From NCBI GenBank assembly GCA_000310025.1, contig FN648692.1, forward strand, positions 28,269 through 77,004: a stretch of 48,736 nucleotides of DNA, written 5' to 3'. Positions within the stretch are counted from its first letter, which is position 1; the number at the start of each line of letters is the position of its first letter. The notes under the pieces are model-generated. The model saw nothing but the letters and a program-made list of their open reading frames with translations. It did no database searches and was not told the origin of the DNA. Source of the stretch: Ectocarpus siliculosus (Eukaryota; Sar; Phaeophyceae; Ectocarpales; Ectocarpaceae). Both the position numbers and the translations under genes were made by a program. Below are positions 290-48,736 of the stretch, in pieces.

Positions 290-3200
290 ATGTCTGCGCC
301 GTCAGCATCCGCAGGATGCCCGTTTGTGCGGGTGCTCTACCTGCACTTCGTGCTGCTGCTCGCGTTCTTCACGTCGGTCGAAGCAACAGCCATGACCAAG
401 GGCGGTTGCCCTGTCTCTCGCCTGCAGGCGGCCTTCCAGGCCCCCTTTAACTCTCTGTCGTTGGCCCTGCACGGGCAGCAAGCGACCATGAGCAGTCTAA
501 CCGCACGCGATAGGTCGAGCAGTCCACCTATCGCCGCTGGCAACACCGGAGCCCCTCGGTGGGTCTCCGAGGGGGTGAGGTCCCGCGTCGTCCGCTCTCG
601 CACGGTGGACGTGAAGCCGTTAGGGATGTCGGCGGTGGAGACAAAGCCGGGCAACAAGCGGGCGGCGGAGGGAGAGCCGGAGGAAGCCAAGGAGACCAAG
701 GCCCAGAAGAAGGCAAGGAGGATTGCTGCGTCCTCCACCCCGCTCAGCGTCCACGTTATCGGCCTGTCGCACCACAACGCCGGCGTCGACGTCCGCGAGA
801 GGCTTGCTGTGCCCGAGGCGGAGTGGAACCTAGCATCCGCTAAGGTGTGTGTGTGTGTGGGTGTTAGTGCTTTAGGCGTTACAGCGGTATTGCGACGGGT
901 GTCGGAAATCCCGGTGTTGTTCTCGGGGCGTCGTCGAGCTATCCTGCCGCGCTCTTGTTCTCCACGCTCTCTTCGAAAATTGTGTTGTTTTGTGACTGGA
1001 GACGCGTAACAGAGCTCTCGGGTTGTTGTTGCATGAACTGCTGTAGGCATGATGCTTACTGACATTGTGGGTGGTCCAGCATTGTAAAGGGTGCGTTGTT
1101 GCACTTACACCGGCAACAGCAGCGTTTCAATTCTTTGGTGATGTACATTGCACGTAAATAGTACGTACGGTGGCTGCTTGATTGTGCCCCTCAGGAGCAT
1201 GCATGTTTGTTCAACCACAGCGTCACGAGAAGTCAGCGTTGCCAAGCCGCTCTCCCTGACTGTGAATACGAGCGGTTCATGTCTTGGAGCACGTTGTCGG
1301 TTGATAGGCGTGGATGTCACCAGCCCATTGCACTGCTATATGACGATACCCGGTTTCCGATGGAATCTTCATGTCTGTTTGGTGTAGTCTCTTGTGTGAC
1401 GTGTCCCCCCGTCATTCTCTCCAGAAGAAAGTGGTCTCCGGATGTATGCGCGTTGTCATGTTTATGAACGAGTGTAGAGTTCATGTGTGGCGCAGACTTG
1501 ACGGAGGCACCCACAACGGCACCGTGGCAGGGTTCCGAAGCAAAACAACGCGCTGCTCAACATATGGACGTGTACGTGTAGGCAGGATCAAATGCAGCTG
1601 CAGCAACACCGCGAGACACGAATCCATTATTTGATCATTGAAGTTTGGCGAACAACCCCCTCCTTCCTCCTGCTGCCTCTTCGCCATCTGTCTGCGTTCT
1701 TCTCCTCTTGGGGAAACCCACAACAACCTACGGCGGAAAATGGCGACCAACCCCAAAAGCTGTGCGGCTACGAGAACATCCGGGAGGCCGCGGTGCTGTC
1801 GACGTGCAACCGGTTCGAGGTGTACGTCGCCGCCACCGACGCCCACGCGGCCATCCGAGACGTGATGACACACCTGCAGGAGTACTCGGGCCTTTCCCAG
1901 TCGGAGCTACGGCAAAACCTGTTCATGCTCTCCAGGGAGGACGCGGTGTGGCATCTGCTGAGGGTTAGCGCTGGCTTGGACTCGCTGGTGGTGGGAGAGG
2001 GGCAGATCTTGTCGCAGGTGGGTTCTTTGACAGCAGCAGCGGCGGTGGAAAGTTCGCTCGATATGTTTACTCCCTTACCTTTGCGACTCATGATGATAAA
2101 CGTCCATTCTCGTGTTCAAGGAGGCTTCGGAACACATGGCCAAAAATTTGCGGTCCTGTGTTGGCTGCTTCCATGTTATGGCATCTCACCGAAGAATCAA
2201 GCTGGTGTCATATGTCCTTGATAAATAGACTTGCAAGCAACGATAGATTCGTCGGAATATAACGGTACCTCTTGGTTATGTTTGCACGCTACAAGTACAC
2301 AATGATCCCTCGTTGTGAGTGACTATGTTTGTAAGTTGTCTAGTTATTAACAAGCCAGATACCCAGAACACGTACACTTGAAACTCCGAGCTGGCTGTGT
2401 TGGTCGCCCACCAACGGCACAACCACAACAAAAGAAGCGCCCCGTACGTGCGTTTCCAGCGTGCATACAGCAGTAAGGCAGCGACACGATAGTAGGATGC
2501 TGTCCAGGGTGAGCTTGTCTCGAAATACGGTGAAGAGAGGCGCGCTCTTTCTCGACCATGTGGGCGCTCAACCCAAGCGCTGAGGTGGGGATGTGGCGAA
2601 AGAGGAGAGCGAGAGCAATTCACAACGCAGTGTGCATGACAGCACGGCAAATAATCTCGAATAATCTCCGACGCCGGTCGCCCCGGTAGTCTATTTAGTC
2701 TACTGGCCAGGGTCAGGGGTTCGATTCCCGAGGTAAGCGAGCTTTTCTCGCGATATGAGTTTTTCTCTCGCTTCCGTTCCTGTCCTGGGTGGAAATCGCT
2801 ATAACAAGTTCGTGTGTACACATATATCGGGAAGGGAGTGCTGCCCTCTTCTCGCATAAAAACATCCCGTTCGACTGTGGGTATATCTCGAATGGGTAGT
2901 CTTTCTGTGTGTGTATTTATTGTTCCTTAATTAATATAGAATCGACGACAGACACGAAGTCGAGCTATTAAAATGAAATATCCACTTGAGAAACGTATAT
3001 TCAACAAAAACTGCGCCACGTATGCAGCAAAAATGTCTGTGTGTCTCCCGTCACCTACGAACCCAATGCATTGGCCCCTGCAAATATCTCCAAACCGTCA
3101 ACTCCAAAGAATGATACTCAAAAAGAGTACCAAAACAAGCATCTGCGCTACGTCAGAATAGCGTCGAAACGGTAACGGACATTGCTCGAGATACACAGCT

Positions 3201-27621: not shown

Positions 27622-30600
27622 CTACACCATCTCAGCTATAGCACATGGTAGTCGGATACACAAAAGTGGACACCACAAACTGTCTTTGTTGACTGTTTCC
27701 CGGACTCTCCTCTGTGGAAGAGATTCAACTACTTGTGTTCGGGTAAGAAAAAAAAGGACAACGAAAAAGAAAAAGAAGCCGCTTCTTACCCGAACCTTGA
27801 CCCCTCTGAGGCTATCGCTGATGCTGTCGTGACCACCATGCGAACTCCAATCCAAGGCCTTTCCCGTGCATCCCTCTTTCCTGTTGGCGATGAGGAAATA
27901 GACAACCTCCGTGTGCCCCCTCGCCGCCGCCCAATCCATGGCATTCGTGCTGTTTTCAGCAGAAGATCAACAGAAGAAATAAACATAGCTTTCAAGTGAA
28001 CATGGCTTTCAAGTGAACAACTTACTGCGAAATATGCATAATTGCAGCAAAAAATTGTCAAAATTATTTCGGGGGGGATGCGTTCGTACGGTGTTAAAGG
28101 GGGGATCAGAGGTAACCAACGACAACTAGCAGCAGCAACAACAACGGCAACAAGCCGCAACAAGCAACCGCGAGAGTACCAAACAGACCTGCAGCCCTCC
28201 TTTCTGTTGAAGTGCAAGAACTTGACGATGTCGAGGTGCCCGTTCTTCGCGGCGTTGTCCATCGCGTTGTTCGTGCAGTTCCCCACGTGGGTCTCGTGCA
28301 GCCACTTCACCACGTCAAGGTGCCCGTTCAGCGCCGCGTGGTTCATCGCTCGGATGCTGCAGCCCTCCGTTCGGTTCGCGTTGAGCCACTGCACGACTTC
28401 AAGGTGACCGTTCCCTGCCGCTTCGTCCATCGCCGGCCGGGTGCAACCCTGCCGATTTCGATTTCGTTACAGACATGCCACCACGAACGAGCACGTTTGT
28501 CCCACGAGCAGGGTTAAAATGACAACTTCTTTCCTTAGGGTGAGGGTCACTTGCACATTTTTGGATGCACACATCGCCGTTTTTCAACGGACGGAGGCCG
28601 AGAAAAGCTCCATCGCAATTTCAACCCTAAAGAGCACGTCACCAACAAATGCTGCTGTGTATTCTCTTGAGTGCTTTTTGTAGTCGCCCAGTCTATGCTG
28701 GGCGCCAGCCTACAACTACACCTTTCTGTATACTTCGTACGTTTGACACCCCAGCCTGGGTAAGTCATACAGGAGGAAGTCAAGCGAACACCGGAGGTTT
28801 CCGGCACACAAAAAACGAGGAGCTATGATAGCCCACTTCCCGTGCTCGAGACGATATGCCCTCTTTTGCTTTCGCCGATGACGCTCTGCTCTGCTCTCAC
28901 AATTTACTTACTTTCGCCACATCCCTGGCTTTACACATCGCTCTTAACATACACACACACACAAACACACAAACACACCTCTGCGCGGTTCTCGTGTAGC
29001 CAGATCAGAGTCTCAAGATGACCGTTCTTGGCGGCCCAATTCATGGCTCGAGAGGAGCACCCCTCTACCCTGGCCTCGTGCAGCACCTCGAGGACCTTGA
29101 GGTGGCCGTGATTGGCCACCCAGTCCATGATGCTGCGGTTCGCGGGGCACCGCTCCGTGCGGTGTCTCAGCAGCCACCGCACCACATCCGCGTGGCCGGT
29201 CTGGATCGCGTCATCGCGTCCACCGACGATGATAAAAAGACAAGAGGGACCAGGAGTGAGAGGTGACAAAGTCGTGTGTTATACTACCAATGACGTGATC
29301 GTTGAGTGTGGATAGCATGTTTGCGTCAACAACATCGTGAATAAGCGACGACAACAGGAGAGGGAGGAGGCGTGAGAGGTGCCGAAATCGTACTCCGTGT
29401 GTTTCGTCAACAACGACAAAATCGTCAACAAACAACAGCAGAAGCACATGACCACAGTTGTATGCAGCGATCGTGTTGGATGATTCACTACCTTGGCTGC
29501 GAGGAAGAGAGCGTCGCCCGTACACCCCTCCTGCCTGTTCTGGTGAAGCCACTTGACTACCCCTAGAGACCCGTTCTCTGCCGCACCGTCCATCGCGTCA
29601 GTCGTGCAACCCTGAAGTGGTCGCCACAAACAAAGTCGGACAGCAACAACGGGGACAACGAGTAACACGCAATCGGAAGAAGACAAGAGTGTTTAGTTTG
29701 AAGGGGAAGAAATCGATCTTGTTTCGGCGGAAAAGGAGTCGACACACGAAGGCGAACCGGAACCATTGCGGGTGCATACCCGTCGACAACATAAAAAAAA
29801 AAAGTGGAAAAAAAAGAGAGAAGTGGGCCAGTGCGGCACGCCAATATACGGCAACAGGTAATGGCACCGTCATGGTTATAAAGAGCCAAGTAAAATACCC
29901 AACATGAAGACGGCATTCCGACAGAGGAACGTAAACAACCGCCGGGCCCCTCCCCTACCTCGACAGAGGCAAGAGATAACGTACCGACAAGTTTCCGATT
30001 GGTTGGAAGAGGCTAAACGACTCATGAAAGCAGTGACTTCACGCAAGAGGGGTTAGGGTGAACGACAAGACAGCAGTCGGCAACGGTAACGGTAACGGTA
30101 ACGGTAACGATAGCGCACCTCTTGTCTGTTGTTATGCAACCATTCCACCATCTTCAGGTGGCCGTTCGCCGCTGCTCCGTCCATCGCCTTCTCCGTGCAT
30201 CCCTCGGTACGATTGTCGTGTAACCACTATCAGTCGGTCCAGCCATGATCATTCCAACAACCACGCATCAAGAGCACCGAGTGGGGTGGACGCAACACAA
30301 AGCGCAGCACAGACAACAACAGGGGAGAGGGAGATCGAACATCGTGAGCGAAAGGAGAGTAACAAGCACACCCGCCTGGCGGTGTTGCCGGCACACCAGC
30401 AGCGTCAAATCGGTTCTACATTTCGCCTCTGAACACAGGCACCTGAAGACAAGGGTTAGCCACCGCGGGAACCACGCACGCCGCGTACACGCCGGCTGCA
30501 AGAAGCCGCGGTAGGAGAATGCGTACGACTTGGCAACTCTGCCGCATTCGCTTCATCGTCCGCGTTTGTGTGGGCAGCAGCAGTGAGCGTTTTCGTCGTT

Positions 30601-38254: not shown

Positions 38255-41200
38255 CTAGATCGACCGCTCGTTGTTGGCAGGCGCGACGTCTGGAGCACCC
38301 TCAGCGGCATCATCGTCACCATCATCAACGCCTTCCCCGTCCTGGGTTCTCCTGTTCTTGAGCCCCATCACGAGCTCCGCCACGGCGGCGTCTTCCGCGG
38401 AGTTGGCGGGCGGGATCGCTGTTGCCGCCGCCAGCGCGCCCTGTAGAGCGCCCCCCGGGCCGGCGTGAGGGTCCCCGCTGCTGATCGAAGAGGTAGTCGC
38501 GCCCGCACCGCCATGTGGTTCGAACATGTTGCCGCCGAGTGCCCCCCCGCCGCCGCCGGCGGCGGTGGTGCCCTGCCCTATCATGGACCCGGCAAATCTA
38601 TGGGTGACCATTGGGGAGTAGAGGTGCCGGTCGAAGCTCCCCGTACCTCCAGCTACGGGGTGGGTGTCGCTGAGGAAGGATATGCCGCCAGGACCTTGCC
38701 GCTGGAACGGCGTGCCTCCCCCGCTGCCGTTGTCACCGCCCATGCGCCCGCCAGTTCCTGATCCGCAGAAGGTCCTCGAGTAGTTGGTGGAGGAGTCGGC
38801 GACGCTGTACACCCCGCCGTTCACGTCGGAGTCTCCCCCTGCCTGCTGCTGCAAGTCTAGCTTGGGGCGGGCAGAAGCGGCCGCCTCGACGGCGAGGCGC
38901 GCATCCCTCAGATCTCTCGCTCTCTTCCGGCTGCAGACGTTCACCATACCTTCTTTCGCATGCTGCGCACAGAACTCCCGCTTCTTGGAGCCGGCCACGC
39001 CGTACGATGGCCCCTTCGTGCAGCCCTGAAAGCCGCACCTCTTGTTGTACACGTCGACCATCCCTCCCTTTGCATGTGGCGCACAGAACTCCCGCTTCTT
39101 GCTGCCGGCGACACCGTATTTTGGCTGCTTCGTACAACCGGGGTGAGCGCAGCGCTTGTTGCACACGCCCACCATCCCCGGCCTCGCATGGTTTGCACAG
39201 AACTCGGCCTTTTTGGAGGGGGGCATGCCGTACGACGGCCACTTGTTGCAACCGCTGTGCGCGCACCTCTTGCTAACGACATCGATCATCGTCTTTTTCG
39301 CGTGATGGAGGCAGAACTGGGGCTTCTTGCTACCCGGTGCGCCGTAGGAAGATCGCTTGGTACACCCCGCATGGCCACACCTGCTCGTGGGCATACGGAT
39401 GGTGGTTGGATAGTCTGCCGTGCGTTTTTGCGTTACACAGGTGGTAGAGACTAGTGTAGGGGGTGCCGTGATGATACACGGGGACCTTTCCTGCTTGGTG
39501 TGCTGCATGCAACCGCTCCCTTTCAACGCCACGCCCTGGTACGGGCGTTGTCTCATCTCCTGGAGTTAACCCTGTTGAGTCTACAGGCGCTCGGACATAT
39601 GGTTGATAGATCGTTTCATAGGGTCGGGGACTGGCGCTCCAGCGCCAGTCTCAGGAATACTGGCTGCGTGCCGCAGCCAAGTAACCAGGACATTATCAGT
39701 ACAATGGCCACGCGGCGAAGCCGCGTGGTCGCGGTGCAGCCGCGACCACCGTCCCCCCCCGGCTGGTGAGGGGGCCCCGCCGGAGGCGCGTTTTAACGCG
39801 ATTTGGCTTCACTAGAACATTTATTTTGGGTGATTTTGGGTCACTTTGACGACACCAGAGTCAGGGATTAAATCCTTGAAATCCTTGAAGAACGATCAAT
39901 ATGTTGGCAATTTTTTCTTGAAGCGTTGGTTGGGTGTGACAACACGCATCGGATTTAGCATGTAGCTTCGGTTGGGTGTGACACACACATCGAATTTAAC
40001 ATGTTCACCATGAAGCTGCTTCCAAACCATCTCCAACTTGAAAGCCTTCCAAGATGGTTCTCATTTTTCATCAAGATGGTGCTCATTTTTCTTCAACAAA
40101 TTTGTGTGCTTCGTGTTTAGTTTTTGGTTTGGGTATTTTTTTCAGCAATATAGCAGCAAAACTGGAAGGCATTTAGTTAAGATCACGCTGCTGGTGGCCA
40201 GCCTGCATCTTTTGCTGGGGAGAAAAAAACAAAAAAACAGATTGACTTTATGCATACTAAATTATGGCCGTTCTACATGATGAGTCAAGAAGGCCCGGCT
40301 GTTTTTTTTTTTCGAGGCCGAGGCGGGTTCTGTGCTTCGTCCTTGCGCTACTCTCTCACCCCCTCATGCGGCGCAATGGTGGGTTTCCATGTGGTTTAGG
40401 AGGCATAATGCGGGACGTACGTAACATGCGTCAGTACTGGGTGTACTGGCACCCCTCTGAACTAGTCCTAGGAAACTGTCCAGTACAGGAATACTGTCAG
40501 TACCTACTGGTCCAGTCCCCAACCCCATCGTTTTTATCATTAATTATATTCTAGAAAGCCTCGACCAGACGGTCTCGTCGTAGAGGGGAGGATAGGGAAA
40601 AGCACCGAACCGCACACGCAACAAGTTGAACAGCACAGCAAGCTAGCGAGCGCCCGCCACCAGCTCCCCGCCACACACAAACACAAGAGCTCATGGGGAG
40701 GCCTCTACGCCCCGAGTGGTCTGCCCTGTCTATCTGGGAGGCGTCGTTGGCATTCCTGTTTGTACATCAGATTTCGACCCCTATGAGGCTAGTGATGATG
40801 ATGATGAGGATGACGATGGCATGTTTGATATGGGCCCAATGTACAGGCCGCGATGTGGTGCGAACTCGCACAACACTGGTCTCAATATGCGGGGGGCAGC
40901 TCGGCAGCAACGACAACATCCGACCCCGACATCACCGGTCACGCCGCCGGTCCAGACGGCATCGCGTGAGCCGCAACAGCGGCAGAGGCAGCGGCAACGG
41001 CAACAGGGCAGCAGGAACGATACCCACCGGAGCCTGCTCCGGCCAATAACTCGAACTCGCATGACGCTAGTGACAACACCCGGGGCGCAATCGGCAACAG
41101 CGAGCACAACAGCGGACGCCGGCCCGACCGGTCACGCAGCAGCTCCGGACGACCTCGACCTCGCGTGAGTCGCAGGAGCAGCAACAGCAGCAGGAACAGC

Positions 41201-44200
41201 AGCAGCAACCAGCCCCACCGGATCCTTCTCCGGCCAACTCTGCCGTAAATGTCGCTATCTTAGCCCGCGGCCGGAACAAAGGCCAAAAGTGCGGCAACAA
41301 GGTTGGAGGTAGGACGGCAGGACTTCGCAAGCACCATGACGGCATCTGGCGCAGCTCTTAGAGTGGGGAGCACCGGTGGGGCAGCCAACTATGATTCGGA
41401 CAACGAGTTGGGTTGTGGCGTGGACGAACTGCAGATTCCTCGTGCGGATCTTCGCATATGTACCACAGTCCAAGGGCGTGCACTACGCCCAGGCAGCGAA
41501 AATCGCTCATGACGGCTTCAAGAGGGCACAGGAGAGTGTGTGGCACCTCAAGCGACAGAAGTCTCCAAAAATAAACGTGAGGCAGGTAGAGTTTCGCCTA
41601 AATTCGAGCGCTGGCGCATATTCCTAGAAAAGTATCCCTGCATGACAAAACGATAAAACGCCGTGAGTACACATTGGTGCCGCTTTGTCTTTGTTCGATA
41701 ACCATACACATGTTTCTCATGTAGGTGTTTGGTTCACAGCAGTATCATCGACCGCGCTAGCCGGCTGACCAATGCGAAGTTTTGGAGTCGCTAATTGCTC
41801 TAGGCGAAATTGTCATCTGTCTCTGTGGTACTCTGACCAAACGTACAATCTGAGGCTGCCTTGTGCCATGTGTTTTTCGGTGCTGTTGTACGACTCAGTT
41901 CTTTCAGGTGCATCGTTAGGTTATCCTCTATGATACCCCTCCCCATAGGTGTTTGTTGTTGACATTTTCCAGGAAGGTCAACCACCTCCTGGTCCGGGAC
42001 TGGGGTGTCTTTCAGGAGGTTCCCTCGAAGAAGATGGCGGACGGATCTCGAGAGTACGCCTCATACATACATGCAATTGTCATCTACTGGTGTGTGTGCT
42101 ATTCTATGGGGCACACCTGGCGTGGAGGTTCAGTCGAACTGGGACGATCACCGGGGCATCGGAGCCCACGACAACTACCCCCTGGTCCGGGCCCACATGC
42201 CTCGAGACCTGTTCATCCTGTTCTACGGCCGTTTCTTCCACTTGGCCCCAGCCACCGGCAAGCTCAACAAGGATGATCCCCAGTTCGACTGAACCTCGAC
42301 GTCAGGTGTGCCCCACAGAATAGCACACACACCAGTAGATTACAATTTACAATGGTATGTTTGGTGGGTGGGTGTGTTCTACCATTTCGTTTAGGGAGTA
42401 TTTATAATTTTCAGTTTTGGGAACGCAACATAGGTTATTCTTTCCCATCGGCGCTGTGTTGTCTCCTCCGCCCTCTCAGCAGAACGGCCTGCATATTGCC
42501 GAATAGAAATTGCAAGAAAACGAACCGTTTGGGCCCGATGTAAGCTGCTTTGGATGAGAGTGTATGTCGTCATCGGAACACGAAACATCCGTATCGTTGT
42601 CGGCCTCAAAATGCGCTCGGGTTGCATAAGTGATAAATAGTTCAACGCCGGTTGGGAGAGTAAAACTCATGCAGTCCTGCGGACCCCCGGCCCAAAGCAG
42701 TAAACTGCAATTGTACTTTCATCACTGCTCTCTACGCGAAGCCCGCCGGGTAGCTCCACCGATGCCGCGATTCAACGGTTCTGTGTTTGCCGACAAAACA
42801 CGTGTGCACTCTGTCAGACCGTGCAAATGACTCGTGCTAATGTGAGCATGATTTACATCTGCTACTCTTGGCAGGGAGCTGGAGGACGTGTTGAACATGA
42901 AGTCAGACGCTGCAGAGGCATCAGAGAGGTATCTAGCAGAAAACCGGGGAGGCGGCGCCCCGTCCGAGTTCATGGTCGTGAGATCTGACAACGGAGGAGA
43001 GTTTTGCGAGAGAGAGTTCTGAAAGCTGTGCCGCAAGTACTGCATCAAGAAGGAGTTATCTCCGCACACAGCCCAGAGTACAGCTCTGTAGCTGAGAGAG
43101 CACTGGGTCTGATCAAGGATGCAACACTACCCGCCCGTATCCAAGCGCCGATTCTTTACCCCGGAGCGCCGAATTACCCCTCCCTTTGGGCCGAGGCCTT
43201 AGCTTGGGCATGCAACGCCCTGTGCTGCACCTTCACCACATCCACCCCGGAGAAGAAATCGCCGCTTGAAATGTGGCACGGGCACCCCCCTTCGCCAGGG
43301 GTGACGTACCCGTTTCTCAAACCCGCCGTATGCAAGGTCAAGCGCACGTACAAGTCAGAGCCGAAAGCCCAAAAGTGTTACTACTTCGGCCCTGGGGTCA
43401 ACCACAACCGTGACTGCGTACGCATCCTGACCGAAAAACACCAAGCGATCACTACTCGCAACTTCATCTGGCAACCCGTGCCCGCCGTCCCGACCGCGCA
43501 CCCCCAGCCACTGCCTCCCACCACAGGGGAGGAAGTGACGCTCACAACCGGGGAGCACGAGGGAATAGAGGGTGCGCCATGCCAAGGTGGAGGGGGGGCG
43601 GAGGGAGAACCTGTGTATGGAGGACCAGGTTTCAACCTTGATACGACGGCAGCCGCGCGGCCCGGCCCGGGCGCGATGCACCGGCGGCGCCGCCGGCCAC
43701 GCCCCAGGAGTCCGGAGCGGGTTACACAGGCGATGGCGCCCCTCGGTTAGCGGCGGCAGCGGCAGCGACAGTAACAGCGACAGCGGCAGCAGCGGCAGCA
43801 ACAGCAGCAGCAGCAGCAGCAGCGACAGCGAGACGAATCTCTTGGCGCTCCGCGGGCCAGAGGCCCGGAGTCTCTTCCGCTTTGACGAGCCGGCGGAACT
43901 CACCAGCTGCCGCACCAGGGAGAACCCTCGCCGAAACCCGATGTACGAGTCGCCACCTTCGCCGACGAGTACGGAGGCCCTGCGCCTCGGTGGCGAGCTT
44001 GCCCATCAACAGCACGGAGGAATTCACCCGCTGGATGCTCGCGTCGGTACTTCGCGTGGCGCAAGGGCTAGAGGGGGTATGAACCTCAACCACGGGAACG
44101 TAAAACAGGCATGCACACATGCCACGTTGGATGAAGAAGTGTACGCGAGGCTCCCCGCTGGGTGCGGGGGAAAATCGCACAACATCGTGAAGGCTGAGCG

Positions 44201-46930
44201 TGTTATTTACGGTTTGAACCACTGCCAGGCAGTGGTTCATTGCAGTGGTTCAAACCGTACACAGCACGCTCAGCCTTGACGATGTTACGCGATTTTTCCC
44301 CGCCCCCAGCGGTGAGCCTCATCTACACTTCCTCGTCCAACGTGGTATGTGTAGGTACCATGCTGCCGATAAGTTACCCGAGAACGGGTTCGAGCAGCGC
44401 AAGGCGGATCGGTGTGTTTTCCGCAAGATGGTAGACGAAGTCGTGGTGATAACTATCGTCATATACATGGATGCCATTTTGGTGGCTGGGTCTGATGAGG
44501 ATTGCGAGGAGTTGGACCCTTCTCTCAACAACACATTCCCAAAGACCATGGAGAGTGCGTGTGGTTTGACGGGTGTGCCATTGAGAAAGACCGTAGAGGC
44601 TGGGACTCCTAAAATCTCCCAAACCACGTACATTGACAGCATGGTGAATCGCTTTGATGTACAATCGCCCTCGCCCATCCCTGCTTTTCCCCTGGTGCCG
44701 ACCTAGGACCCAAGCGAGATGACGAGAGTGGAGGGGGGTGGCAGGTGCATCGGCAGCATGATGTGGGTGTCGACGTTCTCGCTCCCGGACGTTTCGTTCG
44801 CCATGCGTGCGGTAGCGCGCGCCAACCGAGAGGCACTGGAAGGCCATCATGAAAATCCTCGGCTACCTGAAAGGGACGAGGGGTCCTCGGCATCACTTAC
44901 CAGCGGGGATCGGGGTTAGGGCTGGTGGTATACGTAGACGCCAGCTGCGCCGACGCGGAGGATAGGCGTTCGGTGTCAGGGATGGCGACGACGGTTGGAG
45001 GTACCGTAATCAGTCATGGTAGCAAGACGCAGAGCATCGTGTCTGTGTCTTCGGCCGAAGCCGAGTATATAGCTGCCGGAGAGGGTGTGAAGGAGGCTTT
45101 GTTCGTGCGTGCAATGCTTTCGTTGTTGTCCAAGAAACCAGTGGCAGCAGCATCCAGGTCGTTGAGGACAACCAAAGGGGGCATGGCTTTGGTGCAGAAC
45201 CCCCTAAGCTCAGCTCGCAGTAAGCACATTGACATTCGATACCACTTCATTCGTGGGTTGTTCAGGTTGGGGGATATCTCGACAAAGTTGTGTCGACGTC
45301 GGAGCAGCACGCCGATCTGCTCACAAAGGCCCTTGGCAGGGACAGTCTGCAGTACCACCGGCGCAAGGTGATGAATTTGCCGGAGTAGCTGTAGCAGCTT
45401 TATCACTTGGGAAAGTTCATGTATGTCATGGGTGGAAAGACAATGCCATCTCGCGTACAATTGTACGGTCGCGGTCGGTGTACCTATGGTAGGAGTAGGG
45501 GGCATTGGGAGGCCTTTGTCCGGGGGAACGTAGTTTCTTGCGATCTCTGGTACTCTTGTCTTTGTCTTGGCCTGTCTAATAAGTGCGGCCGTTGAAATCC
45601 GCTGTGGTAGCGACCGTTTTGTTTTGGATGGGGTTTTTCGAAGGGGCTTTGCCCGGGCACCGGGTTTCCCTTCGACCACCGCATTGGCGGTCTATTGATT
45701 TATCACGGTTAATACATATGCCCCACTGATCGCTAGTCACTTGCGTGAAGAACAAGGGAGGGTGTTCGTGGGTATACGGATATTGGTTGGAGATGTCTGC
45801 CGTCGTTCTTGTGTTACACAGATGGTAGAGACTACCGGTGGTACTATTGGGGTGCCGTGATGATACACGGGCACCCTTCTGGGTGCTCTACATTTGCACA
45901 TGCAGCCACTCCCTTTTAAGGGCGCGGGGGCGTACGCAGTGTGTCCTCTTCAAAAATCCAGGAAACGCCTGTATATCTCACTTTTTCGAAAGTGTCGTTC
46001 CGGTACGAAACTACCATCGCAAATTAACCGTCCGCAGCGGTCGCTCGTGTACAATATTAAATATAATAGCATCTGAGATTGTAGCCCTTGTGATACAATG
46101 CAGACTAGCGGTCCGCGATTTTCCAAACGATCCTTCTATCATCGAGATCGGTGAGGTACAGGCAGGGTTTTTGACTCTTCAAGCACCTTTGCTTATGGTA
46201 AGACTTATATACATGACCCCAGGTATTCAAATCGATTATGGCGACGAGTAGGACATGTAAGGGATCAGCTGCGCTGAAGTTCGCGGCCCCACACACTCAC
46301 ACAGACAGGCGCTGTTCGCCGTTACTGCTGTGGGCTTGAAGCGTTTCAAGATCGGACCGCACAGCAGCTTAAAAAAATCCTGCTTGAAGCTCACCGATCT
46401 CGATGATACACAGAAGGATCGTTAGAAAAATCGCAGACCGCTTTTCTGTTCAGACACTTCGGTTGTACACAAGCGACCGCCTGCGGACGATTAATTCGCG
46501 ATGGTAGTTTCGTACGGGTGTACATAGACTTGAGAAAACTGAGATATGCAGGCGTTCTGGGTTTTCGAAGAGGTAACACTGCGTATCTCCCCGCGCCCTT
46601 AACGCCACGCTCTGGTACGGGCGTTGTCTCATTTCCTGAAGTTAATACACTTTCAAGGAAGTGTAACCTCGAAAAGTACGCGGTACGGCTGCAAACATAC
46701 CTCTTGCTGCACACGTCCACCATATCCTTGGCAGCGTGCGCGACACAGAACTCCGCCTTTTTCGATCCCTTGTGGCCGTACGAAGGGTGCTTGGAGCAAC
46801 CCGGGTGGTCACACCTCTTGCTGATGACATTGAGCATCCCGTCTTTAGCGTGGGTCGCGCAGTATTCTGCCGTCCGGGTGCCTTGCACCCCGAATGAGCC
46901 AACCTTGCTGCACCCGTGCTCCTTGCATGT
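38255..46930 (-). CDS. EsV-1-7 repeat protein, interrupted by an LTR retrotransposon
   Basis: Two minus-strand exons code six tandem C-x4-C-x16-C-x2-H-x12 units. Exon 46930-46701 carries two (from Cys of TCKEHGC) and ends at a GTATGT donor in phase 2; exon 39380-38255 carries four and then a Gly/Ser-rich tail of about 220 residues. Joining them makes AG|G, an Arg, and keeps the 12-residue spacer exact (MVDVCSKR|CGHAGC). The EsV-1-7 family is named after a brown-algal virus gene and includes the Ectocarpus developmental regulator IMM; the Cys/His spacing suggests metal binding, but the biochemical role is unknown. Earlier exons should lie above 46930 but were not found. The long frame continuing to an ATG at 39556 reads into the LTR, so a shorter four-repeat product started from the LTR is also possible. 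Whether the gene still works is unknown. Confidence 0.75.
39382..39570 (+). repeat. 5' LTR
   Basis: About 189 bp, matching 45763-45915 plus 46603-46646. It abuts the four-repeat EsV-1-7 exon; its first base T (A on the other strand) supplies half of the AG acceptor used by that exon. An open frame from an ATG at 39556 runs through it on the minus strand into the exon. Confidence 0.8.
39630..39800. repeat. Array of perfect stem-loops
   Basis: Five exact hairpins follow within 171 bp: 39630-39649 (arms ACTGGCGCT), 39661-39679 (TGGCTGCG), 39708-39728 (CCACGCGGC with a GAA loop), 39725-39749 (GTGGTCGCGG, overlapping the former) and 39787-39800 (CGCGTT). GGGGCCCC occurs between the last two. Part of the block recurs inverted at 17398-17445. 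It lies just inside the 5' LTR and may be a separate insertion. Confidence 0.85.
40716..41627 (+). other. Unassigned open frames in the retrotransposon's left internal region
   Basis: A frame from 40716 reads an acidic run (ASDDDDEDDDGMFD) and then Gln/Arg-rich low complexity to a stop at 41168. A second frame near 41236-41350 reads ILARGRNKGQKCGNKVGG, AT-hook-like. These could be remnants of gag or of another transposon's N-terminus. No zinc knuckle was seen, and no firm assignment is made. Confidence 0.25.
42074..42348 (+). mobile_element. TIR-bounded segment with a piggyBac-like transposase fragment
   Basis: Near-perfect inverted repeats of about 40 bp (ATCTACTGGTGTGTGTGCTA and onward, left from 42082; right mirrored to 42340) enclose a frame that reads NYPLVRAHMPRDLFILFYGR and ends KLNKDDPQFD. 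This matches the piggyBac domain pattern of a Met-Ser/Pro-Arg-Asp-x-Phe helix followed by DDP. Only a short N-terminal piece of the domain is present and the catalytic Asp residues are absent. CAATT flanks both sides. Nested in the retrotransposon. Confidence 0.55.
42880..43500 (+). pseudogene. Copia integrase remnant
   Basis: FMVVRSDNGGEF, the core motif with the second catalytic Asp, is followed by a TGA stop at 43020-43022 and then a frameshift near 43080. The other frame continues with VAERALGLIKDA, WAEALAWACNALCC and SPLEMWHG, the usual integrase C-terminal landmarks, and CYYFGPGVNHNRDCVRI. The upstream zinc-binding and protease parts were not found. Confidence 0.8.
44077..44705 (+). pseudogene. 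Copia reverse transcriptase remnant
   Basis: A first piece reads NVKQACTHATLDEEVYARLP and IVKAERVIYGLNHC. An inverted copy of the same region interrupts it at about 44240-44354. The domain then resumes with FEQRKADRCVFRKM and an altered active-site box (YMDA in place of YVDD), ending at a stop at 44704-44706. The catalytic change and the rearrangement make it inactive. Confidence 0.8.
44112..44354. repeat. Inverted duplication within the reverse transcriptase region
   Basis: Left arm 44112-44230 and right arm 44240-44354 are inverted copies with about 85-90 percent identity by eye. The centre is a perfect palindrome with 11-bp arms GAACCACTGCC at 44216-44238. Both arms encode the same piece of reverse transcriptase, the right one on the minus strand. 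Confidence 0.85.
44912..45330 (+). pseudogene. Copia RNase H remnant
   Basis: VVYVDASCADAEDRRSVSG is followed by QSIVSVSSAEAEYIAAGEG and ARSKHIDIRYHFIR, the standard copia RNase H signature. Frame breaks lie just upstream (near 44880-44920, after a GYLKGTRG relic) and downstream of the last motif. It is followed by the purine tract at 45754-45762 and the 3' LTR. Confidence 0.85.
45754..45762 (+). other. Polypurine tract
   Basis: AAGGGAGGG directly precedes the TG of the 3' LTR, where LTR elements prime plus-strand DNA synthesis. The position supports the LTR border and the element's orientation. Confidence 0.7.
45763..46646 (+). repeat. 3' LTR, interrupted by a TTAA element
   Basis: Matches the 5' LTR over 45763-45915 and 46603-46646. 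The gap in the match is the insertion at 45920-46598. Short indels (near 45838-45850 and 45888-45905) distinguish the two LTRs, so the element is not recent. Confidence 0.8.
45916..46602. mobile_element. Foldback element with TTAA target duplication
   Basis: A 679-bp element (45920-46598) starts GGGCGCGGGG and ends with the inverted sequence CCCCGCGCCC. TTAA lies at both borders (45916-45919 and 46599-46602), the target duplication typical of piggyBac elements. The arms are very long, about 254 bp left and 229 bp right, with one indel of about 30 bp in the left. The centre (46174-46369) has no coding capacity. The 5' LTR shows the unoccupied site as CTCCCTTTCAACGCC. Confidence 0.8.
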
Positions 46931-48736
46931 CTGGGAAAAACGCGGCGGGATGGGAGCAACAACAAAGCAGACACCACAGCAGCGCGAGAAAAGAAGGCAA
47001 CACGGAGGGCACTCAAGGGAGACGATAGACACGCACCGAATGCGTCCACCCGACAGAAGGCGGTGGGGCGAGGAGGCCTGGTCGAGACAACAGTCTTTCC
47101 GTCGTTCGGTCAATCTCGAGCATCGCTGAAGGTGGGCGCACCTACGCTGCGTGTGTTTGTCTGTTGCGGAATGTGAACATATGAGACTCCTACGTACACA
47201 CTTCACCACAAGCATGCAAACATCCCTTGCGTTTGGTTATGTTACCGTTGCTTGCTTCGCAGGAAGCTCAACTCACCACCATGTTTGTAGCCGGTCCTGA
47301 CCACAGCTGCTGCTACTACGGGAGGAACAGGTGTGTAAGTATGTTCACAAACGGTTACCCGAGACCGGGTGGCGCAGATCTCTGCCTTGGGCGGTTGAGC
47401 CGTGTCTCCTTTGGGTTCCGCGGTTTCGCGATTCGGGAGAGAGGAAATTCAACGGGGCGCCCGGTCTATCTCCACGGTCCAGGCAGCAGGCAGTGTCGCG
47501 TTAATCCTCCGTTGCACGAAAGGACCGAGCACGGCGAGGTTCTTCGATCATTTGTTGAGGCGAGGCCCTCGAGGGGGACCTTCGGACAGGACCTGTTTAT
47601 TGTGACGGGTTATATATATTATGCGGGGTACCGCAATAAAAAATCTCCTCTTAGGTAGGGTCTCTCCGCGTCTCTGTCTGCCTCCACTGCTGTGTTGCTG
47701 CCGTCACTAGCTATGTAGATACACGGAGAGTTGTCTTGTTCCGGTTATTGGTGCATCATTTTCTCTGGGTTGTCGAGAGTAGTGAGAACACTGTCAGATT
47801 CGCACAGTAGTAAATATTAGAGGGTCTCACACGAAAAAGAGTGGCTACAACTCGGAGAATAACTCAGACACAACAAATTGAGTTTTCGTCCAGTCGGGTG
47901 TGTTCTCGTGGCACTGGACGTCTGTGCACGGCGGCATATAAAAACAGGTCTACTGACGTGCGTGCGCATCGTCACTATTGCTACGGGCTGTCTTTGATGT
48001 TCTCGGATGGCATTTTCTATTTTTCAGGTGTACCCATGCTAGCTTTCGCACGTGAGAATGAATGGATGTACTTGCGCGAATGCTGCACACGAACGACCCA
48101 TCGGGGAGAGCCAACCAACGCGCAAGTCCCTGGGTGTCAGCGCAGTGGCTGCAAATCCGTGCGGTAGGAAGGCGAAGCGGACGTGCACGCCACCAGCAAA
48201 GCAGCGGACCAGGCCATCACGAGTCTAGATGCCGCGGCAACAGCTGCCGCTCACGAAACAAAAAAGGGCACCCAAGCCTCCGAAGAAGAGGAGAGAGGAA
48301 GGGATAAAATGGGGAGATCAATTGATCGATCCACACCAACAAGCCTCACGCATATGGTATGAGCAACAACGCCCCCCTGCCCCCTACCCTCCTATCCAGA
48401 CGCCCATCAACTCTCGAGGTCTCAAAGCTCTAGCACGCTCTAATATCGAACGTCATGCAGATGGGCATGACGTCGCTTAGAGGCTGCCGGCCACGTGCCA
48501 CGCGCGGATGATCCCGTCGGTGTACCTGGTAAATTACCAACAACAACGCGAACGGAAATCACCGGGAACAAGAAACAGGAGTGAGATAAACCGGGAGTCA
48601 CAATCGAGTTTGGAATAATCTTGGACGTGTGCGCCTTGCCAAGTTCTCAACTCTCGAGGCGTTGTAAGAAAGAGAACCCGTACCGAACACTGCACTGACG
48701 CGCCGTTTACCTAACAAGCCGTTCTACATCATGCGC
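46931..48736. other. Region upstream of the two-repeat EsV-1-7 exon
   Basis: Earlier exons and the promoter of the EsV-1-7 gene are expected here on the minus strand. Short open frames exist on both strands, but none shows a Cys/His repeat or a convincing exon. A possible ATG GTG|GTGAGT exon end on the minus strand near 47281 is too short to support. Confidence 0.35.

What the first reader, a model, noticed from the sequence alone, without database searches (positions are those of the whole stretch)
38255..46930. A retrotransposon splits a six-repeat EsV-1-7 gene and appears to supply its new splice acceptor
Seen: exon 46930-46701 ends in phase 2 at AAGAG|GTATGT after two C-x4-C-x16-C-x2-H-x12 units; exon 39380-38255 starts with one base G and then four units. 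Between them lies an LTR element of 7.27 kb. The acceptor AG at 39382-39381 consists of the last base of the LTR (A on the minus strand) and the first base of the target duplication (G). Splicing across gives AG|G, Arg, and keeps the 12-residue spacer between repeats exactly. Without the insertion the two exons would have been about 55 bp apart. Inference: the host gene may tolerate the insertion by using a junction-made acceptor, or may now produce two separate proteins.
Basis: partly seen in the sequence, partly recalled or inferred. Interest (0 to 1): 0.9.

Follow-up and report, generated by a model that had tools for sequence, protein, structure and literature searches.

The report
Jumping element that became an intron
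In a brown alga, a mobile element landed inside the coding part of a gene at a spot where its own ends and the duplicated target bases form both splice signals, so the cell can probably cut the whole element out of the RNA as a new intron.

Summary
The exons, six EsV-1-7 repeats and junction-made acceptor are real. One key point is wrong: the "55 bp" beside the donor is not host DNA but the end of the LTR, because related LTRs elsewhere in the genome run TGTTCGTGGG...TGCAAACA to the same end. The element (39382-46697, Copia-like, decayed, antisense to the gene) fills intron 46700-39381 except for four host bases. Joined flanks read AAGAGGTGTGGCC, uninterrupted coding sequence. The insertion therefore made both splice sites: donor GT lies in the target duplication (GGTA/GGTG) and the LTR's TGT supplies donor +4 to +6; acceptor AG is the LTR's last A plus the duplication's first G. 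Splicing would restore AGG (Arg) exactly. Five of seven informative relatives read straight across the site; an Ectocarpus sp. 8 protein begins MPTSR, the codons at the LTR edge, so it appears to share the insertion; a partial sp. 12 protein stops at the junction Arg. LTR divergence (K2P 0.205) beside intact exons suggests selection kept both halves. Splicing itself is unproven: no RNA was available. Copia insertions acting as introns are reported in Brassica; my searches showed no brown-algal case. A well-resolved new member of a known kind.

The parts
47277..47282 (-). proposed first coding exon, ATGGTG|GTGAGT (Met-Val)
   Evidence: sequence; orthologues P0004 and P0077 begin MVTCK
46931..47276 (-). 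proposed intron 1, GTGAGT...TTTTTCCCAG, 346 bp
   Evidence: sequence; not tested on RNA
46701..46930 (-). exon 2, EsV-1-7 units 1 and 2, ends AAGAG in phase 2
39381..46700 (-). proposed intron 2, 7,320 bp: three host bases GTA, the 7,316-bp element, one host base G
46695..46701 (-). donor: last exon base G, then GTA from the host and TGT from the LTR end
39381..39382 (-). acceptor AG: A is the LTR's terminal base, G is host
46698..46701 (-). left copy of the target duplication, GGTA
   Evidence: duplication length by comparison with relatives
39378..39381 (-). right copy of the target duplication, GGTG
39382..46697 (+). Copia-like LTR element, antisense to the gene, decayed
   Evidence: LTR ends from relatives; RVT_2 match
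39382..39569 (+). 5' LTR, tail after 39569 not found
45751..45762 (+). purine tract AACAAGGGAGGG before the 3' LTR
   Evidence: a similar tract precedes several other 3' LTRs
45763..46697 (+). 3' LTR, TGTTCGTGGG...TGCAAACA, interrupted by a nested element
45916..46602 (.). nested inverted-repeat element with TTAA at both ends
44245..44706 (+). reverse transcriptase remnant (RVT_2)
   Evidence: PF07727 E 4.6e-5, 23.6 bits, below the curated cut-off of 31.6
38255..39380 (-). exon 3, EsV-1-7 units 3 to 6, C-terminal tail and stop
   Evidence: PF19114

Best explanation
A Copia-like retrotransposon inserted, antisense, into a continuous coding exon of a six-repeat EsV-1-7 gene, at the proto-splice site A^GGTG on a repeat boundary. 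The short target duplication plus the element's TG...CA ends made a donor (AG|GTR-TGT) and an acceptor (CA-G|GTG) together. The spliceosome most likely removes all 7,320 bp and restores AAG AGG TGT without changing a codon, so the element has become an intron. Shown here: element ends, host flanks, reading frames, uninterrupted site in relatives. Inferred: that it is spliced, and that selection kept both halves.
For: LTR ends defined by other copies, flush with both exons. Joined flanks give unbroken coding sequence. Five of seven informative relatives (P0001, P0003, P0004, P0021, P0078) read straight across; P0002 begins with the codons of the LTR edge; P0077 ends at the junction Arg. Six of six paralogue loci checked carry 5 to 16 units in one open frame. 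Exons intact beside LTRs that differ by K2P 0.205 over 186 sites; in neutral simulations exon 2 stayed open with both units in 0.04% to 7.8% of 5,000 runs at that divergence.
Against: No RNA evidence. Acceptor of middling quality: 60% pyrimidine in the 30 bases before it and a competing GAG three bases upstream. The LTR reads open in frame into exon 3, with a Met at 39556 and another at MPTSR, and the Ectocarpus sp. 8 protein P0002 is annotated from that second Met. At half the divergence exon 2 survived in 10% to 28% of runs. The two LTRs are not sisters in the free tree, though this is not rejected (p-AU 0.204). Relatives have a 5-bp duplication where clear; here it is 4 bp with one change or 5 bp with two.
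Confidence: 0.75

Rival explanations
1. The insertion split the gene into two products: a two-repeat protein that reads on into the LTR, and a four-repeat protein started inside the LTR (Met at 39556 or at MPTSR).
For: The LTR is open in frame upstream of exon 3 for dozens of codons, and exon 2 reads on for about 100 codons before a stop. P0002 from Ectocarpus sp. 8 is annotated from the LTR Met.
Against: P0002 lies on a 7,607-bp contig, so its model may simply lack the far upstream exon. The splice frame restores the exact 12-residue spacer. A consensus-like donor GTATGT is present.
Confidence: 0.15
2. One reading: a short host intron existed and the element only replaced its acceptor.
For: The donor GTATGT looks normal. 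Other brown-algal sequences (P0021, P0078) seem to have an intron at another repeat boundary, after unit 4.
Against: The 55 bp are LTR sequence: other copies match through to the end. P0021 and P0078 run uninterrupted across this junction. Only GTA and G of the intron are host bases.
Confidence: 0.04
3. The locus is a dead or misassembled gene and nothing is spliced.
For: No annotated protein clearly from this very genome was among the hits with the full query. The contig is a small one of 77 kb.
Against: Both exons are open with all units intact despite the LTR divergence. The same LTR-exon edge appears in an Ectocarpus sp. 8 protein. P0077 keeps all Cys and His of units 1 and 2.
Confidence: 0.06

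Closest known systems
Copia insertions acting as new introns in Brassica rapa (PMC9241368; passages seen)
   Same: Copia LTR elements of 4,819 and 4,716 bp inside exons, described as acting as new introns
   Different: Those are insertion polymorphisms within a crop; this one is older, nested, shared with at least one other species by its protein, and resolved to the base
AGGT model of intron gain by transposon insertion (PMC3443670; section 7 read)
   Same: Insertion at AGGT, with the duplicated target giving AG|GT and AG|G without changing the protein
   Different: Here the A of the acceptor comes from the LTR end, not from the duplication
Introners (PMC9860276; section 7 read)
   Same: Splice sites shared between duplication and element
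   Different: Introners there are short (median 30-654 nt) multi-copy families tied to DNA transposons; 'LTR' has 0 occurrences in that text
EsV-1-7 protein family (PF19114)
   Same: Six Cys-Cys-Cys-His repeats
   Different: Six of six paralogue loci checked have their repeats in one open frame; this one is split between units 2 and 3

Membership tests
EsV-1-7 protein family | C-x4-C-x16-C-x2-H repeats matching PF19114 | tested here: met
   six units; PF19114 E 9.2e-63 on the downstream ORF
LTR retrotransposon | two direct LTRs with TG...CA ends | tested here: met
   the 5' LTR has lost its tail
LTR retrotransposon | target-site duplication | tested here: inconclusive
   GGTA/GGTG with one change; two relatives have exact 5-bp duplications, one has 4 of 5, one is ambiguous
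Ty1/Copia superfamily | Copia-type reverse transcriptase (RVT_2) | tested here: inconclusive
   PF07727 E 4.6e-5 but 23.6 bits against a cut-off of 31.6; the other element ORFs and pieces gave no Pfam match
Ty1/Copia superfamily | order integrase, reverse transcriptase, RNase H | not tested
   seen only by eye from recalled motifs in the pieces
transposon-derived intron (AGGT model) | insertion at AGGT that leaves the coding sequence intact after splicing | tested here: met
   joined flanks AAGAGGTGTGGCC, frame kept
transposon-derived intron (AGGT model) | the element is removed by splicing | not testable with these tools
   no RNA data
Introner | many similar copies serving as introns in one genome | tested here: inconclusive
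   two junction patterns turned up one other copy of this LTR, without clearly coding flanks; a narrow test

The most novel reading that the evidence does not exclude
The TG...CA ends shared by LTR elements are half of a splice-site pair. Wherever an element lands on A^GGTR, in either orientation, its ends complete a donor (GTR-TG) and an acceptor (CA-G). Repeat genes such as EsV-1-7, with AGGTR at several repeat boundaries (4 of 5 here), are natural landing sites, and some long brown-algal introns may be intronised LTR elements.
Probability: 0.25. Interest if true: 0.75.

Novelty: new member of a known kind. Interest (0 to 1): 0.57.

Why it matters
Where new introns come from is still argued about, and LTR retrotransposons are rare among the resolved cases that I found. 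Here the birth of a 7.3-kb intron can be read base by base, the empty state survives in relatives, and the gene belongs to a family that includes the brown-algal developmental gene IMM (passage of PMC7457493). One RT-PCR would settle it, and a scan for LTR ends flush with exon borders would show how many long introns arose this way.

Tried and rejected
Pre-existing 55-bp intron: rejected, the stretch is LTR. A second intronised copy of this LTR: the C26 copy has an AGGT-like target but no clearly coding flanks, and by eye none of the 10 GGTNTGTTCGTGGG sites continues as this LTR; both patterns occur about as often as their controls (10 against 8; 13 against 16). Sister DNA in viral contigs: 56 pattern matches, none a relative. 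Lost tail of the 5' LTR and the sequence that follows it in relatives: not found within the mismatches allowed. LTR pair as sisters: unresolved. Pfam on element pieces: beyond RVT_2 no match. Another allele of exon 2 in the own genome: none; the other 39 matches are at most 79% identical. Splice-site scoring against a brown-algal matrix was not done. In some searches my 5' LTR began one base late (39383), which has no effect on the conclusions. The simulation's highest indel rate (0.029) rested on a rough count of 11 gaps; the alignment shows 8 internal gaps (about 0.021), between two rates that were run.

Full report
What is there. On the minus strand the gene runs from a small proposed first coding exon (ATG GTG at 47282-47277) over exon 2 (46930-46701) to exon 3 (39380-38255). 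Joined, exons 2 and 3 encode six C-x4-C-x16-C-x2-H units, each followed by 12 residues, and a tail ending in a stop. The downstream ORF matches PF19114, EsV-1-7, at E 9.2e-63, and more weakly PF24906. The window's genome is probably Ectocarpus: contig C18 has 4,589,578 bases, the length of the contig listed for P0073, which its source names Ectocarpus siliculosus; this is inference.

The element. Fifteen matches to the start of the LTR and twenty to its end were found in the genome, the window's own copies included. Most other copies end ...TGCAAACA or ...GACAAACA, followed either by CTCTAGAGTTT (inside an element) or by unrelated flank, and where the start was found they begin TGTTCGTGGG after a purine tract or a flank. 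A few are decayed at the end. That fixes the LTR ends in the window at 39382 and 46697. From four relatives with two LTRs on one contig I read by eye the duplications CAGCG/CAGCG, GTGCT/GTGCT, ACGGG/ACGAG and an ambiguous TATG repeat. A nested inverted-repeat element with TTAA at both ends (45916-46602) sits in the 3' LTR; its full-length relatives are at most 77% identical. RVT_2 is the only Pfam match among the element's ORFs that I tested (E 4.6e-5, below the curated cut-off). It lies on the plus strand, so the element is antisense to the gene.

The junctions. One search gives exon AAGAG | GTA (host) | TGTTTGCAGCC (LTR) on one side and CCACGAGCA (LTR) | G (host) | GTGTGGCC (exon) on the other. 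The four-base duplication is GGTA/GGTG, with one transition; a five-base one, as in the clear relatives, would need two changes. Leaving the element out gives AAGAGGTGTGGCC, coding without a break. So there is no host intron sequence left over from an earlier intron, and both splice sites date from the insertion. The target A^GGTG is a proto-splice site. AGGTR occurs at 6 places in the 1,356 coding bases, and 4 of these are boundaries between units (4 of the 5 boundaries), the insertion site being one.

Relatives. Of 76 hits with the full protein I read nine and later P0021; of 2 hits with exon 2, both; of 39 hits with the repeats, eight more, none of which covers the junction as an orthologue by my reading. 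Seven proteins bear on the junction between units 2 and 3. P0001, P0003, P0004, P0021 and P0078 read straight across. P0001 and P0003 lie on contigs of 6,055 and 6,417 bp, too short for this intron, though P0001 could be a transcript, and P0003 and P0004 are annotated proteins that could hide a short intron. P0021 and P0078 run into unrelated residues after GVCNK, as unspliced genomic DNA would, so they speak most directly for an empty site. P0002 (Ectocarpus sp. 8) begins MPTSR-CGHAGC, which is what the window's LTR edge encodes. P0077 (Ectocarpus sp. 12, partial) ends at the Arg of the junction. So the insertion appears shared with sp. 8, probably with sp. 12, and absent from E. fasciculatus as far as its protein shows. 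Six of six paralogue loci looked at carry 5 to 16 units in one open frame, out of 118 matches. No second allele of exon 2 was found in the assembly.

Function after insertion. The LTR pair differs by K2P 0.205 over 186 sites (20 transitions, 13 transversions). If both were identical at insertion, neutral exons would have decayed. At half that distance per lineage, exon 2 kept frame and both units in 0.04%, 0.98% and 7.8% of 5,000 simulations for indel rates 0.029, 0.010 and 0 per site, and exon 3 kept frame and four units in 0%, 0% and 0.15% of 2,000. With substitutions halved again, exon 2 survived in 10% (indel 0.005) to 28% (no indels) and exon 3 in 0% to 3.8%. This supports selection on both halves but is no proof. 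The two LTRs are not sisters in the tree, but their union is not rejected (p-AU 0.204), so their distance as a clock is uncertain.

Against. No RNA was available. The acceptor is of middling quality: 60% pyrimidine over 30 bases, with GAG three bases upstream of CAG. The LTR offers in-frame starts before exon 3, and the sp. 8 protein is annotated from one of them. These leave a real chance of two products or of mixed splicing.

Literature. Passages of PMC9241368 report Copia elements of 4,819 and 4,716 bp in Brassica rapa exons acting as new introns. Section 7 of PMC3443670 sets out the AGGT model. Section 7 of PMC9860276 describes Introners with shared splice sites; 'LTR' does not occur in that text. 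Passages of PMC12477816 (12 of 31 places shown) on Ectocarpus transposons give a median autosomal intron of 524 bp and discuss insertions in introns; those passages do not mention intron birth. Searches for 'Ectocarpus' with 'intron gain' (21 papers, 20 listed) and for LTR retrotransposons as introns showed no brown-algal case in titles and abstract beginnings; apart from the papers named here I did not open those listed. The held library lacks most subscription journals, so a published case could be missed. The kind is known; this is a well-resolved case in a lineage for which I found none.

Noticed in passing
window 45916-46602: Nested inverted-repeat element with TTAA at both ends, member of a family with many copies in the genome (127 matches listed, 40 of 194 candidates scored; full-length copies 74-77% identical).
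   Followed up: partly
window 44115-44352 and 42075-42347: Inverted repeats inside the element: a palindrome 83% complementary to itself and a 76-base pair of arms at 92%, possibly further nested elements.
   Followed up: no
window 39381-39556, minus strand: The LTR reads open in frame into exon 3 from a Met at 39556, so a start inside the LTR is possible.
   Followed up: partly
proteins P0021 and P0078: Both leave the gene after GVCNK, the end of unit 4, as if an intron lay at that other repeat boundary in those brown algae.
   Followed up: no
L010 (G000:C26, about 779985-780221): Another copy of the LTR sits on an AGGT-like target (GGTT/GGTG on its minus strand), without clearly coding flanks.
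   Followed up: partly
P0002 and P0003, C-termini: Both annotated proteins end differently from the window after NNER (WDTWAT... instead of SI-stop), perhaps an alternative last exon or an annotation choice.
   Followed up: no
window 1592-2221 (+) and 27786-28430 (-): ORFs matching the glutamyl-tRNA reductase N-terminal domain and ankyrin repeats.
   Followed up: no
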